Below are positions 4,993 to 31,026 of a stretch of 32,594 bases of DNA, in pieces (within the stretch, counting starts at the first letter, position 1; the number at the start of each line of letters is the position of its first letter). The notes under the pieces are model-generated. The model did not search any database. It saw only the letters and a list, made by a program, of their open reading frames with translations, and was not told the origin of the DNA. Location: contig JAPLIO010000165.1 in NCBI GenBank assembly GCA_026389055.1, positions 1 through 32,594 of the forward strand. The letters are read 5' to 3'. A program made the translations under genes and the position numbers. The DNA comes from Candidatus Melainabacteria bacterium (lineage in GTDB: Bacteria > Cyanobacteriota > Vampirovibrionia > Vampirovibrionales > JAJTHC01).

Positions 4993-7035
4993 TTATAAAA
5001 TTTCGGGTTGGCGTTCCAGCGGTAATTCAGAAACCAGCACCACGGTTTTAATCCGATGCCCCTCTAATTCCTGAACGGTGATGGTCATCCCCTCAAAAAA
5101 GATGCTATCGTTAGGTTCGGGTTCACGCCCTAGTTGCCCAAACACAAAGCCCGCAATGGTTTTAAAGTCATCTTCAGGAATGTGTAAATTCAGTTCGGCA
5201 TTCAGGTCTTCAATTAAATACCGCCCCGGTACAATCCAGTGTGTTGGCGAAAGGGAAACTAATTCATCTTCATCGCCTTGTTCGTCGGCATCTTCCCATA
5301 GTTCGCCTACTAGCTCTTCCATTAAATCTGCCACAGTTACTAAGCCTGCAAAGCCACCGTGTTCATCTATCACGGCTGCCATTTGAAATTTAGACCGTTT
5401 TAAATCTTCCAGCAACGCAGTTAGCGTTTTATTTTCGGGGTAAATAGGGATATCTTTTAGCAACCCTGCTAAATTGGGTTTTAACCGCATGGCAGTGTCT
5501 TCATCTGCTAAGCATTTCAGCACTTCTCGTTCATGAATAACCCCTTCCAATTGGTCGATGGTTTCCTTGTAAACGGGCAACTTAGAATGCCGATGTTCCG
5601 TAAATAATTTGGCTACTTCTAGCACGGGCGTATCAAAATCCACCATTACCACATCTGTTCGGGGAATCATCACATCGGAAACTACTCGTTCCGAAAACGC
5701 CATCACGTTGGAAAGCATGACACCTTCTTGGGGGGCTATTACTTGCTGAATTTGCCCTTCTTCCACCAATTTATCGAACGATTCTCGCCAAGTGGCTTCG
5801 CTTTCATCCGCTTCTACTTCAACTACCACATCACGCACCCGAGGATGGGTCGATTGAATGCGTTCCTTGAGGTGGTCAATAATATCATCCATCTGCCGAA
5901 TAGGAATATCGGGGTCTACCTGCACTTTTAGTTGCACAAACAGCCCACTAATGCCTTGGTCAATCGTTTTTAAATCCATAATAGAGGCCACGCCGTGGGT
6001 TTTTGAAACCACATCGCTTAAGCTTTTTTCCGTTTTACTAGAAGCAGAAACCCCTGTTAAAAACGACCGATTATAGCTAAACAGATTAACTGCCAGCACC
6101 ATCAGCAAAATACCAATCACAACCGAAGCAATGGCATCAGGAATTTGAGCTTGTGTTGGGGTTAGCCACTTTGCGTGAACGCCCCATTCACCAATTAACA
6201 AAGCGAACAAGGCAATTAATGCCCCTGTAAAAGCTATTAAATCTTCAAAAAACACAAAGCGGGTGGTGGGGCTGGTTACAAACTTTACTCGTTTAAGGGC
6301 TTTGGGGAACATTGCCCAGACGGAAACTTTTTCTCCGTTGCCTGCTTCTTGCAGTACGGCGTTGGAAGCGGCGGTTAATGCCCCAATTTCAAAGAAAACG
6401 CTCAGCACCAAAATAACAATAGCCCAAGTAATATCGCCCAATTCTTTGCTTGGGTGAACAAGGCGTTCTACCCCCATGTAAACCGAAACCAAGGCACTGA
6501 CAAATAAAATAAAGCTGGCTAATAATGCCCAAAAATTGGCTTCTAATCCGTACCCAAAATGGTGCGAACGGTCTGGGGGGCGTTTACCTTGAATAATACC
6601 AAATAGCAGGGTAAAGCTGTTGAAGGTATCGGCAGCGGAATGCAATCCTTCGCTAAACAAGGCAGCAGAACGGGTAATAGTGGAAGCTACCACTATTTTA
6701 CAAGCTGCAATTAGCCCATTAAATAACATGGCATATAGCACGGCATTCAAGGCGTGCTTGTAGTGTAAATCTTTGGTTTTATCAATGCCCGCTGTGGTCT
6801 CTTGAAAAGTAATACCATCGGTTGAACTGACGGTGGTTTTGGTCTTCGGGGAGGCAATGGCTGAACTGGTAGCGGGTTCAGTTAGTACGGAAGCCCCTGC
6901 TTTTAGGGGGTCAGAAGGCGGAGGTGAAGAAGTAAGCGGGGCAGAAGAGCTACTGTCCATAGGGTCTTTTCGGTACCTGTTAAAATTGAAGGCTCGGTAG
7001 AGCAGTTGGGTAATGATTGTTTTATTATAAGTCAA
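4993..7035 (-). CDS. CDF (SLC30A9-like) cation transporter fused to a CBS pair and a CorC/HlyC domain; start probably nearer 6960 (MDSSSSAP)
   Basis: N-terminal CDF domain (ALFSEGLHSAADTFNSFTLLFGIIQGKRPPDRSHHFGYG), then CBS pair (VSDVMIPRTDVVMVDFDTPVLEVAKLFTEHRHSKLPVY) and CorC_HlyC tail (PGRYLIEDLNAELNLHIPEDDFKTIAGFVFGQLGREP), all in one uninterrupted ORF. Confidence 0.9.
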   Translation of the reverse strand: MTYNKTIITQLLYRAFNFNRYRKDPMDSSSSAPLTSSPPPSDPLKAGASVLTEPATSSAIASPKTKTTVSSTDGITFQETTAGIDKTKDLHYKHALNAVLYAMLFNGLIAACKIVVASTITRSAALFSEGLHSAADTFNSFTLLFGIIQGKRPPDRSHHFGYGLEANFWALLASFILFVSALVSVYMGVERLVHPSKELGDITWAIVILVLSVFFEIGALTAASNAVLQEAGNGEKVSVWAMFPKALKRVKFVTSPTTRFVFFEDLIAFTGALIALFALLIGEWGVHAKWLTPTQAQIPDAIASVVIGILLMVLAVNLFSYNRSFLTGVSASSKTEKSLSDVVSKTHGVASIMDLKTIDQGISGLFVQLKVQVDPDIPIRQMDDIIDHLKERIQSTHPRVRDVVVEVEADESEATWRESFDKLVEEGQIQQVIAPQEGVMLSNVMAFSERVVSDVMIPRTDVVMVDFDTPVLEVAKLFTEHRHSKLPVYKETIDQLEGVIHEREVLKCLADEDTAMRLKPNLAGLLKDIPIYPENKTLTALLEDLKRSKFQMAAVIDEHGGFAGLVTVADLMEELVGELWEDADEQGDEDELVSLSPTHWIVPGRYLIEDLNAELNLHIPEDDFKTIAGFVFGQLGREPEPNDSIFFEGMTITVQELEGHRIKTVVLVSELPLERQPEIL

Positions 7036-9609: not shown

Positions 9610-9874
9610 ACGTTGTAATTAAGCGATGTTTTTCAATAATCATATTAAAGAAAACAATCGAATTGGCCGACTGTTTTATTAATGCTTAGCATCGTTTACC
9701 TTTGAGTTGGGTTTTATGCTAATAGCCAGTATTCTTTAAAGCTCTGGGGGAAGCCATTTCCCTACATAGGCAAAATTTCAACACTTTCTTTCTTCTCAAT
9801 CTCTCTCTCTTTTATTTATTTGACTTCTCTTTTTTTAAATACGAACAAAACGACATAGGGGACTTTAATTTCCA

Positions 9875-11269
9875 ATGATGATGATGATGATGACTTCTTC
9901 TTCTAAACACCCACAGTCTCAAGGGGCTTCGTTCCAGTTATTAGGCTCTGCTGCAACATCTGAAAAAACGGTTCTTTCAGGTAAAACGACTCAAAACGCT
10001 GCGAATCCAGTCGTTAAAGGTGGCAGATTGTTAGATGGCTTTACCCCTGAGGCAGCGGGTGTGGTAACGGGTAAACCTGCTCAACAGGCGTTTGATTTTA
10101 TTACTTCCAATGATGGGGCAACGGCTAGTAGCAAAACCACCAAAGCCCAATCGTTTTCAGCTGGGTTTGAACGCTTAAGCGTGAAGCAATTGCCTCGTAA
10201 AAAGCCTGAATTTACGGTAGGTGCTGGGTCTAAAGATATGTTAATTGCCACTTGGCTAACCAACTGGATTACCACGGGCTTAGCCAAAGGTACGTTGACG
10301 GAAAACCATTTATTGCCTTTAAAACAGGAAATTGCTGTTTATTTGGGCGTTAGTATTGGTACCGTTCAAAATGCTATTCGCTATGTGGAAGATGACGGCT
10401 TAGTGGAAAGCAAACAACGCATTGGTACGTTGATTCGTGGTACTTCTAACACGGAAACGGGCGAAACCACGCAAGATGAAAGCCGTGTTCGTAAACAAAC
10501 GTCTAAACGAGATACGGCGGTTGTGGCGTTACAACAACACTTTGTCAAAGCGAATTTCCAAGTAGGGCAAGCCTTGCCTGCTTCTCGGGAATTGGCGAAG
10601 GTGATTGGGTCTGCCCCGAATACAACTCGCTTGGCGTTGGAATTGTTGACGGCTCAAGGGTTGCTTTCTAGCAATAATGCCCGAGGTAAAAAAGCCAATT
10701 GGATTTTACAGGCACTCCCCGCATTGGATGAAAACCAGTTGGGTTCACAAATGGTGGTGCAGACGGATACGCTGATTGACCAATTAGAGCGGGATTTGAA
10801 GCAGTTAATTGCTGATGATTACGAAGTGAACATGAAGTTGCCTTCCCACTTGGAATTGGCGGAATCGCTCAAAGTTTCTATTAAAACCGTGCATGATGCG
10901 ATGCAACGCTTGGTTATTCAAGGCTATGTGCATTCTAAACGGGGGCGGTATGGTACGTTTGTTAGCCGTATTCCTAGCAACTTAATTAATGTTTCTGCTA
11001 TTGAACAGTTGTTTGTGCCTGCGGAAGAACATACGGCTCCTGAATCGGCATTTTACCACTATCAACAGGCGGAAGAGCAGTTGCGGGCGTTGTTGAAAAC
11101 GCAGTATAGCGTTGGGCAACAGTTGCAAGCCATGCCAGAATTGGCTGCCCAGTTGGGTGTTTCCAATAATTCGGTTCGCAGGGCGTTACAAACGTTGTCG
11201 GAAGAAGGCTTGGTTTCTTTCAAGCGAGGCAGATTCGGTGGGACTATTGTGGAAAAAATTCCGCAATAA
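9875..11269 (+). CDS. Regulator with four tandem GntR-type winged-helix domains; starts with six consecutive ATG codons
   Basis: Four repeats of the GntR wHTH pattern, e.g. LPLKQEIAVYLGVSIGTVQNAIRYVEDDGLVESKQRIGT; LPASRELAKVIGSAPNTTRLALELLTAQGLL; LPSHLELAESLKVSIKTVHDAMQRLVIQGYVHSKRGRYGTFV; MPELAAQLGVSNNSVRRALQTLSEEGLVSFKRGRFGGTIV. Confidence 0.85.
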   Translation: MMMMMMTSSSKHPQSQGASFQLLGSAATSEKTVLSGKTTQNAANPVVKGGRLLDGFTPEAAGVVTGKPAQQAFDFITSNDGATASSKTTKAQSFSAGFERLSVKQLPRKKPEFTVGAGSKDMLIATWLTNWITTGLAKGTLTENHLLPLKQEIAVYLGVSIGTVQNAIRYVEDDGLVESKQRIGTLIRGTSNTETGETTQDESRVRKQTSKRDTAVVALQQHFVKANFQVGQALPASRELAKVIGSAPNTTRLALELLTAQGLLSSNNARGKKANWILQALPALDENQLGSQMVVQTDTLIDQLERDLKQLIADDYEVNMKLPSHLELAESLKVSIKTVHDAMQRLVIQGYVHSKRGRYGTFVSRIPSNLINVSAIEQLFVPAEEHTAPESAFYHYQQAEEQLRALLKTQYSVGQQLQAMPELAAQLGVSNNSVRRALQTLSEEGLVSFKRGRFGGTIVEKIPQ

Positions 11270-11341: not shown

Positions 11342-12379
11342 TTAAACTAATGCCAGTTGAAGTGGTCGACTAGTGGTTTCTTGTTGCTCAAAATAAGCGG
11401 TTAAATCTTGCATAATTTTACTAGCCAAAACGTAAGCTAATTGAACTGGCACGGCATTGCCCACCATTTTATATCCATCCACTACTTGCTGATACTTAAA
11501 CAAAAAGTCATCGGGGAACGTTTGAATTCTCGCACATTCCCGAACGGATAATCGCCTGTAGAGATGTTCTTTCCCTCGAGCAAAAATCCGCACGTTTTGT
11601 TCAATAAACGTCATTTTAGGGGCTTGCGGATGAATGGGTGCGTGCCGACCACCTGCTTGAATGGTAAAAGAAGGCTCATCCCATGCCCTTACTCGATTTC
11701 TTGACATGTAAATCGTTGAAAATCCACCCGTCATATATTCATGATTGCCAATGAAACACGCTTCATTGGCATTATTAGGGACTTTTGCAGGTATTGCTGT
11801 TTTCTGTAAATCTGCAATGGCATCAGTTAAGGTTAATTTCTTTTTAAATGGTTTCGGAAACTCAAATTTCAGCCCTAAATCTTCCCTATAGCCGATAAAA
11901 AATACTCGTTTTCTATCTTGAGGCACACCGTAATCTACCGCATTAAGTAGTTCAAAACTGAGTGTATAACCAGCTTCTTTCAATAAGGTTTGGATGTTTT
12001 CTAGGGCTTCACTATGGCGTGAAGCCAGCATGCCAGCCACATTTTCGGCTAAAAAGAAGAGTGGTTTTTTTGCTTTTAACAGGCGGATAAATTCGTAAAA
12101 TAGTTGACCTCTCGGGTCTTCAATCCCTCTTAAAGCCCCCGCTTCGCTCCAACTTTGGCACGGAGGCCCACCAATGATACCAATACAGTCAGGAACGGCT
12201 TCCGCAGGCACATTCCGAATACTTCTTGTGTCTAATGGTGTGTGTGGGAAGTTATGACGGAAAGTAGCTTCAATGCTTTTATCGTATTCATTGGCCCAAA
12301 TAACATTAAAACCCGCTTGTTCAAAGCCTTTATCTAGCCCGCCCGCTCCTGAAAACAACCCGATGATATTTTTATTCAT
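11342..12379 (-). CDS. C5-cytosine DNA methyltransferase, M.HaeIII/M.NgoPII-like (predicted GGCC); true start probably 12379, ORF extends to 12448
   Basis: IGLFSGAGGLDKGFEQAGF, GGPPCQSWSEAGALRGIEDPRGQLFYEFIR, FFLAENVAGM, YGVPQDRKRVFFIGYR, SRNRVRAWDEPSFTIQAGGRHAPIHPQAP, GKEHLYRRLSVRECARIQTFPDDF, GYKMVGNAVP; closely resembles recalled M.HaeIII. Confidence 0.92.
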   Translation of the reverse strand: MNKNIIGLFSGAGGLDKGFEQAGFNVIWANEYDKSIEATFRHNFPHTPLDTRSIRNVPAEAVPDCIGIIGGPPCQSWSEAGALRGIEDPRGQLFYEFIRLLKAKKPLFFLAENVAGMLASRHSEALENIQTLLKEAGYTLSFELLNAVDYGVPQDRKRVFFIGYREDLGLKFEFPKPFKKKLTLTDAIADLQKTAIPAKVPNNANEACFIGNHEYMTGGFSTIYMSRNRVRAWDEPSFTIQAGGRHAPIHPQAPKMTFIEQNVRIFARGKEHLYRRLSVRECARIQTFPDDFLFKYQQVVDGYKMVGNAVPVQLAYVLASKIMQDLTAYFEQQETTSRPLQLALV

Positions 12380-13235
12380 GGCTATAATACTCCATAAAAA
12401 CGGCTTCCAGTAATTGAGCAGGATTATTGGGGTTTTTAATTTTAACAACTCGAATAGAGAAGCCTTTATCTTGCGTTTCTAGTATTTTTAATGCTTGTTT
12501 AGAAGCCTCATCGAAGCTATCCCATTTTTCTTTCTGCATCAAACAAAAGAGTTTAAACCCTTCTTTTTTAGGATGGCTGGGGAGTGTTTCGTATACCTTG
12601 TTGGGGTGAGCAATATGCCACATACCCCGAATACGCAAATCTGTAATACCTAAGGGGTCTACCTTGTGTACTTTTCCTAATTCTTTGGTTTTAGCGTCAA
12701 AATCAATATCAGGTATGGTTTGGATGCCTACAGAAATAGCCGTTTTTATCTTTTCATAGATTTCTTTATCAGCGGTGTAGCAATTTCCGTATACGAACCA
12801 AAGTGTCTTTAAATCAGCACCTTCTACAGTGCCTACAGTGTAAATAATATCTTTCACATCCCAAGTTTCACAAGTGCGGCAAGCTTTGCTTATCATGGGG
12901 CTATCAGCATACAGTTTTGATTTTGGATAGGAACTATTGAGGGCTAAAGCACTATTTTTAGATTCTATTTTCTTAACTTCAATCGCATCACCACCGTGTA
13001 GCATCATATCAGGTGGGTTATTGGCGTTACCTAAATAGGAAAAAATGGCGGTGTAACGTTCTGTTTTGGTGTTGACATCTTCAGCTTGCAATGTACCAGC
13101 AAACGCATCTTTAATGTAGGTTTCTAAAGCCGTTCCCATGTGGTTTGCTCTATTTTTACCCAATGCTTGTTTTTGAGTTTGTCGTTGCGTGCTAGTAATA
13201 ATGTTTTGAATGGCGATTAGAAGAGTTGAAACCAT
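12372..13235 (-). CDS. Type II restriction endonuclease, NgoPII-like
   Basis: Motifs recalled for the NgoPII family (NRANHMGTALETYIKDAFAGTL, FSYLGNANNPPDMMLHGGDAIEVKKIESKNSALALNSSYPKSKLYADSPMISKACRTCETWDVKDIIYTVG); overlaps the methyltransferase start by 8 nt (ATGAATAA). Confidence 0.88.
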   Translation of the reverse strand: MVSTLLIAIQNIITSTQRQTQKQALGKNRANHMGTALETYIKDAFAGTLQAEDVNTKTERYTAIFSYLGNANNPPDMMLHGGDAIEVKKIESKNSALALNSSYPKSKLYADSPMISKACRTCETWDVKDIIYTVGTVEGADLKTLWFVYGNCYTADKEIYEKIKTAISVGIQTIPDIDFDAKTKELGKVHKVDPLGITDLRIRGMWHIAHPNKVYETLPSHPKKEGFKLFCLMQKEKWDSFDEASKQALKILETQDKGFSIRVVKIKNPNNPAQLLEAVFMEYYSHE

Positions 13236-30446: not shown

Positions 30447-30770
30447 TTAAACCCATTGTAGCGGAATGCCTGCTTTTTTCAGCTGTTCGTTCACTACCGC
30501 TTGCACCCAAACTTCCGCAATGCCCCCCAAGGTTAACGCTATTTGATGTGCCAATTTTAAAGTAGGCAACCGCCTGCCTGCTTCATAATCGCAAATGCGT
30601 TGTTTTACTGTACCCAATTGTTGGGCAATTGCTTCTTGGGTTAGGTTGTGTTCCGTGCGATACGCTTCCAACAACGCCCCAAACGTTAGTGCTGGCAAGC
30701 CTAGTTGTTGAAATAATTGCTGGCTACCCGTTGAAGCAGTCGATGGAGTTAAGGCATTTTTAGTAGGCAT
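30447..30770 (-). CDS. HigA-like HTH (XRE) antitoxin, locus 2
   Basis: HTH YRTEHNLTQEAIAQQLGTVKQRICDYEAGRRLPTLKLAHQIAL; start nested in the end of the toxin gene (CATGCCTACTAA). Confidence 0.83.
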   Translation of the reverse strand: MPTKNALTPSTASTGSQQLFQQLGLPALTFGALLEAYRTEHNLTQEAIAQQLGTVKQRICDYEAGRRLPTLKLAHQIALTLGGIAEVWVQAVVNEQLKKAGIPLQWV

Positions 30771-31026
30771 GAGGGGTTAATTCCTCCAATTCTATGAGGG
30801 TTTTGCTGTGTTCACAATAAATAAGACGCCATTGTTGATTGAGCCGAACGCTTCGTTGCCCGAGGCGTTTGCCTTTCAGCGGTTCATCGTGAAAACTAGG
30901 GCGTTTTCGGGTTTCGGCAAGCCCCAATAATTCCACTGCTGTAGCCCATTCTTGAAATTTGGTAACAACCTGCTTGGGTGCTTTGGTAATATCTTTTTTA
31001 AATTGCTTGGTTGTTAAAAAATCCAA
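30760..31026 (-). CDS. HigB/RelE-like toxin, locus 2 (TTG start)
   Basis: HDEPLKGKRLGQRSVRLNQQWRLIYCE...LTPHAY; start codon TTG preceded by AGGAGG. Confidence 0.83.
   Translation of the reverse strand: MDFLTTKQFKKDITKAPKQVVTKFQEWATAVELLGLAETRKRPSFHDEPLKGKRLGQRSVRLNQQWRLIYCEHSKTLIELEELTPHAY

What the first reader, a model, noticed from the sequence alone, without database searches (positions are those of the whole stretch)
9875..11269. Four tandem GntR-type winged helices with no effector domain
After a ~120-residue low-complexity N-terminus the protein comprises four consecutive GntR-like wHTH units (about 10235-10445, 10508-10715, 10765-10980, 11051-11266), without a FCD/UTRA/aminotransferase domain. 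GntR proteins normally have one wHTH plus an effector domain and act as dimers; four in one chain suggests a pre-assembled multi-site DNA binder or nucleoid-associated/architectural protein. Unit 2 is the most degenerate at the recognition helix.
Basis: partly seen in the sequence, partly recalled or inferred. Interest (0 to 1): 0.68.

Follow-up and report, generated by a model that had tools for sequence, protein, structure and literature searches.

The report
Four-winged-helix GntR regulator of Vampirovibrionia
This gene encodes an unusual DNA-binding protein made of four GntR-type winged-helix units in a row and no sensor domain; it is conserved as a single copy in two related groups of non-photosynthetic cyanobacteria and probably controls its own promoter and, in one group, a set of promoters that look alike.

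Summary
The 464-aa ORF at 9875-11269 has four GntR wHTH units. Each alone passes Pfam's GntR cut-off (37, 33, 47, 51 bits against 27), and AlphaFold gives four separate wHTH folds after a disordered N-terminus. No effector domain was found.

It is not a one-off. Single-copy orthologs with all four units occur across the window's order (Vampirovibrio and relatives) and in a second family of the class (f6, probably Gastranaerophilaceae), and not in the rest of the phylum sample. Unit 2 is not degenerate: its recognition helix is the best conserved of the four.

The gene's promoter carries an element (TAGCAnCAAA-N10-TTGTTTTxATATAAAYA) kept in both groups. In f6 it lies in a ~65-bp conserved block and occurs only at this gene. 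In the window's order it recurs in sense orientation upstream of many genes, some encoding low-complexity proteins.

Best reading: an effector-less, multi-site, autoregulating transcription regulator. Direct binding is inferred, not shown; an order-specific sigma factor is the main rival. In the window's own genus the element at this gene has decayed.

The parts
9875..11269 (+). ORF, 464 aa, four-unit GntR wHTH protein
   Evidence: orthologs open in relatives
9875..10231 (+). N-terminal 119 aa, mostly disordered, no domain; begins with six ATG codons; this extension is much shorter in f6 orthologs
   Evidence: searches (no Pfam match; pLDDT <50 over residues 1-94), alignment
10232..10444 (+). 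wHTH unit 1 (recognition helix IGTVQNAIR, 10355-10381)
   Evidence: (37.2 bits)
10490..10711 (+). wHTH unit 2 (recognition helix PNTTRLALE, 10616-10642; invariant K-x-T-S-K-R at its start)
   Evidence: (32.5 bits)
10760..10972 (+). wHTH unit 3 (recognition helix IKTVHDAMQ, 10880-10906; wing RGRYG)
   Evidence: (47.4 bits)
11045..11257 (+). wHTH unit 4 (recognition helix NNSVRRALQ, 11165-11191; wing RGRFGG)
   Evidence: (51.0 bits)
9857..9861 (+). AGGGG, Shine-Dalgarno-like
   Evidence: sequence; AGGGGA(C/G) kept upstream of several orthologs
9671..9687 (+). decayed copy of the promoter element (CTGTTTTATTAATGCTT), where other genera have TTGTTTTAATATAAACA; does not score above chance in this genus
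   Evidence: read by eye against the other promoters; scores
11295..11339 (+). terminator-like hairpin followed by a T run, closing the gene
   Evidence: sequence, read by eye; no terminator scan was run

Best explanation
The protein is a sequence-specific transcription regulator in which four different GntR-type winged helices are covalently linked, replacing the usual dimer of one-wHTH-plus-effector-domain subunits. It most likely binds an extended promoter region (~65 bp in f6) as one multi-site reader and autoregulates. In the window's order the same promoter signature (AGCA box, then TTGTTTTTATATAAAYA) has spread to many promoters, some in front of genes for Ser/Asn/Pro/Gly-rich proteins, which would form its regulon. 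Shown: four wHTH folds (predicted), conservation, single copy, and the promoter element and its distribution. Inferred: that this protein is what reads the element, that one molecule uses several units at once, and whether it activates or represses (overlap with the -35/-10 region in f6 suggests repression there; the lack of a good -35 at the order's sites suggests activation).
For: Four units and folds. Single-copy ortholog throughout the order and nearly all of f6. Recognition helices are more conserved than the rest of each unit. The gene's promoter carries the element in both groups: a PWM trained only on non-self sites of G004 scores 13-21 upstream of 19 of 24 orthologs, p 0.002-0.0075 each against 400 dinucleotide shuffles (the orthologs are not independent of each other). 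In f6, 31 distinct promoters share a ~65-bp conserved block, and the element is exact only at this gene, other matches being at control level, which suits autoregulation. Order-wide: matches exceed the reversed control in all 17 genomes (e.g. 56 v 5, 50 v 0, 51 v 3; weakest 5 v 2) and show no consistent excess in 21 genomes of five other families of the class. In G001, sites scoring >=18 are 11 in sense upstream DNA (252 kb), 1 in coding (3.35 Mb), 0 elsewhere. A GCA box lies at -18/-19 in 11 of 28 sites (p 5e-11, offsets chosen after looking at the sites). TTGT-N10-ACAA fits the general GntR operator form NyGTNxACNy (PMC4494728).
Against: No binding data. G008 (same order, 92% complete) has the element 51 v 3 but no detectable gene, although a MAG gap is possible. 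f6 has the gene but no genome-wide element. In the window's own genus (L001, L002) the element at this gene is not convincingly above chance (12.0 and 6.3; p 0.04 and 0.5; the 12.0 is at another place). The strict sense orientation would also fit a core promoter read by a sigma factor. The G001 set is only mildly enriched for low-complexity N-termini (38% v 18% of genes; Mann-Whitney p 9e-4), with many other kinds of gene among the sites.
Confidence: 0.5

Rival explanations
1. The promoter element is read by a sigma factor (for example the order's FliA/WhiG-like sigma or a second RpoD-like sigma); the four-wHTH gene is just one member of that sigma's regulon, and its own targets are unknown.
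For: The element is strictly sense-oriented and upstream. A sigma family at 63-68 bits is present in all five order genomes whose sigma genes were compared, G008 included, and had no close counterpart among the f6 sigmas compared, which fits the element's genome-wide range better than the wHTH gene does.
Against: The element resembles no sigma-28 promoter that I know. In f6, where no counterpart of that sigma was seen, the element is still present at this one gene, with a normal-looking TTGATG-N17-TATTAT promoter and a conserved spacer, which sigma recognition does not explain. The AGCA box 15-16 nt upstream fits a regulator site.
Confidence: 0.3
2. The protein is a nucleoid-associated or architectural protein that uses four wHTH units to bridge or compact DNA with low specificity.
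For: Four DNA-binding units, no sensor domain, one copy per genome.
Against: The recognition helices differ from each other and are each highly conserved, and a specific conserved promoter block exists at the gene; low-specificity packing would need neither. Not tested directly.
Confidence: 0.1
3. The wHTH array binds RNA, as the four winged helices of SelB bind SECIS RNA.
For: The best fold match in the PDB is the SelB C-terminal winged-helix array (1lva, E 7.8e-07; 2uwm with SECIS RNA).
Against: TM-scores normalised by the query are low (0.12-0.15) because only the repeated small fold is shared, and the same list holds GabR, BusR, DhdR and FadR, some with DNA. The sequence family is GntR in all four units.
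Confidence: 0.05

Closest known systems
GntR family (PF00392; FadR, HutC, MocR, YtrA, AraR, PlmA subfamilies)
   Same: Every unit is a GntR wHTH by Pfam score; TTGT-N10-ACAA fits the family's loose operator form.
   Different: Four units in one chain instead of one, and no C-terminal effector/oligomerisation domain.
MocR/GabR
   Same: Best sequence match in the PDB (GabR, 4n0b and 4mgr, E 1.3e-05).
   Different: GabR has one wHTH and an aminotransferase-like domain; here there is none.
SelB C-terminal domain (four winged helices)
   Same: Array of four winged helices in one chain; top Foldseek hit.
   Different: SelB is an elongation factor whose array binds SECIS RNA; no sequence relation was seen here.
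BusR
   Same: GntR-type wHTH regulator with DNA-bound structures, among the fold matches.
   Different: From general knowledge: one wHTH per chain plus a ligand-sensing domain, reaching several sites by oligomerising.

Membership tests
GntR family of transcription factors | GntR-type wHTH domain (PF00392 above its curated cut-off) | tested here: met
   All four units pass alone: 37.2, 32.5, 47.4, 51.0 bits v 27.
GntR family of transcription factors | C-terminal effector-binding/oligomerisation domain (FCD, UTRA, aminotransferase or the short YtrA type) | tested here: not met
   No such Pfam or NCBIfam domain; the chain ends three residues after unit 4 in the window, and in a short tail predicted mostly unstructured in other families.
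GntR family of transcription factors | Binds DNA specifically, typically a palindromic GT..AC operator | not testable with these tools
   Only indirect: conserved promoter element with TTGT-N10-ACAA.
GntR family of transcription factors | Acts as a dimer | not testable with these tools
   No oligomer prediction was made.
SelB | Elongation-factor GTPase domains in front of the winged-helix array | tested here: not met
   The N-terminal 119 aa match no Pfam family and are mostly disordered.
Nucleoid-associated proteins | Abundant, low-specificity binding across the chromosome | not testable with these tools
   Needs expression and ChIP data.

The most novel reading that the evidence does not exclude
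A lineage-specific master regulator: one protein that reads four adjacent DNA boxes with four different wHTH units, autoregulated since the common ancestor of the two groups, and rewired in Vampirovibrionales to control tens of promoters, many of low-complexity (perhaps surface or secreted) proteins.
Probability: 0.3. Interest if true: 0.8.

Novelty: new variant of a known kind. Interest (0 to 1): 0.6.

Why it matters
Little is known of gene regulation in these non-photosynthetic relatives of cyanobacteria, which include gut bacteria and an algal predator. A near-universal single-copy regulator with a computationally defined promoter element gives a direct, testable entry point. It would also show a second way to build a GntR regulator: linking wHTH units covalently instead of dimerising through a sensor domain.

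Tried and rejected
Phage origin: tblastn against phage records gave only single-domain GntR hits; phrog_9285 aligns best through its first ~97 positions, so it looks like a one-wHTH protein. Plasmids: no match at E 1e-6. Link to the neighbouring NgoPII-like restriction-modification genes: they lie next to the gene in the window only. A shared operon: no constant immediate partner in the order; in most f6 loci the gene lies between infB/rbfA/truB genes and pyrH-frr-cdsA-rnc. Anti-phage defence: PADLOC hits cover only wHTH parts, mostly of CARF-type regulators. An f6 regulon: not found, matches to its element are at control level. The element differs a little between genera, so the counts may understate some of them.

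Full report
OBSERVATION. The ORF at 9875-11269 (+) encodes 464 aa. Pfam GntR scores 145.7 bits over four stretches, and each unit alone passes the family cut-off: 37.2, 32.5, 47.4 and 51.0 bits against 27. AlphaFold, with 22 orthologs, gives four separate three-helix-plus-wing units (pLDDT about 75-91) after a disordered residue 1-94; overall pTM is 0.38, so the arrangement of the units relative to each other is not known. A model of a distant f6 ortholog gives the same four units. No effector domain is present.

RELATIVES. The window lies in a MAG of 2.2 Mb. The contig of G001 that holds the ortholog has the same length as a named record, Vampirovibrio sp. DET50b (1,488,955 bases), so the window's genus is Vampirovibrio as that record uses the name. 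Orthologs with all four units were found in families f1-f3 of the same order and in f6 of the same class. In a sample of 386 genomes of the phylum, 170 have it at E <= 1e-20, almost all in f6, with a few in f11, f1 and f3; two f6 genomes show a second match and three nearly complete f6 genomes none. Genomes of f4, f5, f7, f8, f9 and the photosynthetic members that were searched have only short, single-domain matches or none.

ANATOMY. Mean column identity of the recognition helices is 0.85, 0.93, 0.84 and 0.79 for units 1-4, against 0.63-0.70 for the rest of each unit. The four units differ from each other (unit-to-unit identity 0.18-0.32, units 3 and 4 closest). So each unit looks selected for its own contact, and unit 2 is specialised, not degenerate. 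Most families carry a C-terminal tail (FxWhxhNPxxxxxY) that the window's family f1 lacks.

PROMOTER. Upstream of most orthologs in the order stands TAGCAnCAAA-N10-TTGTTTTAATATAAACA; in f6, TAGCAAAAAA followed by TTGATGTTTTTTTATAAATAGTGTATTATT, which contains a normal-looking -35/-10 pair with 17-nt spacing. In 31 distinct f6 promoters a block of about 65 bp is conserved, spacer included, while flanks drop to about 30-60% identity. Searching four f6 genomes for the 20-base core found exact matches only at this gene, other matches being no more frequent than the reversed control. A PWM made only from non-self sites of G004 gives 13-21 for 19 of 24 ortholog promoters, with shuffle p values of 0.002-0.0075. 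L011 scores low because its start was placed too far upstream; a start further down puts TTTGTTTTTATGCTTACA in the promoter. L013 (11.5) keeps both boxes at the usual spacing. In the window's genus (L001, L002) the element is not convincingly above chance: it has decayed or moved.

GENOME-WIDE ELEMENT. In G004 the 16-base pattern gives 41 matches against 10 for the control, mostly intergenic and often in front of genes for Gly/Ser/Asn/Pro-rich proteins; the next base, outside the query, is A in all 18 distinct sites aligned. Across 44 genomes the element exceeds its control in all 17 genomes of the order, weakly in some of genus g11 (5 v 2), and not consistently in the other families. In G001, which was not used for training, sites scoring >=18 are 11 in sense upstream DNA, 1 in coding and none elsewhere, with a GCA box at -18/-19 in 11 of 28 sites. 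Judged by eye from their sequences, genes behind the sites include an MscL-like channel, an SPFH-like protein, a response regulator and several proteins with Ser/Asn/Pro-rich starts.

INTERPRETATION. The simplest account is autoregulation by a covalent four-unit reader, spread to a regulon in the order. The main doubt is whether the protein reads the element at all. The order has a FliA/WhiG-like sigma (named from its sequence by eye) in all five order genomes compared and with no close counterpart among the f6 sigmas compared, whose range fits the genome-wide element; and G008 has the element without a detectable gene. Against a pure sigma account is f6, where the element persists at this single gene with a conserved spacer.

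NOVELTY. None of the family libraries showed a four-GntR architecture; matches are to wHTH domains. Eight literature searches were run on this topic: Vampirovibrio + GntR, tandem GntR or winged helix, GntR + Gastranaerophilales, multiple/two GntR domains and related phrases, Vampirovibrio chlorellavorus + transcriptional regulator, Melainabacteria + GntR, tandem winged helix + GntR, and GntR subfamily names. The first seven turned up no such protein by title and abstract; the last was for reviews, one of which (PMC4494728) supplied the family definition. The second of them was shown only to its top five of 3,508 papers. The library holds only open-licence papers, and I did not read the other hits, so this is weak evidence of absence. 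I could not survey all bacteria for other chains with several GntR units.

Noticed in passing
window 9875-9892; also 28891 (+), 3025 and 4853 (-); G001 genome-wide: Runs of ATG at gene starts: in G001, 279 of 1093 predicted genes of 100 aa or more that start with ATG (26%) begin with two or more Met codons and 152 (14%) with three or more, against 1.9% Met inside proteins. Small samples of neighbouring genera do not show it.
   Followed up: partly
window 11342-13235 (-): NgoPII-like restriction endonuclease and C5 cytosine methyltransferase next to the gene; not seen there in relatives.
   Followed up: partly
window 30447-31026 (-): YafQ-like toxin (30760-31026) next to an HTH protein, probably a toxin-antitoxin pair.
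   Followed up: no
G004 and G011 loci, e.g. L117, L144, L145, L108, L109: Genes for Gly/Ser/Asn/Pro-rich low-complexity proteins of unknown function stand behind the promoter element.
   Followed up: partly
window 4993-7035 (-): Cation-efflux transporter joined with CBS and CorC/HlyC domains in one ORF.
   Followed up: no
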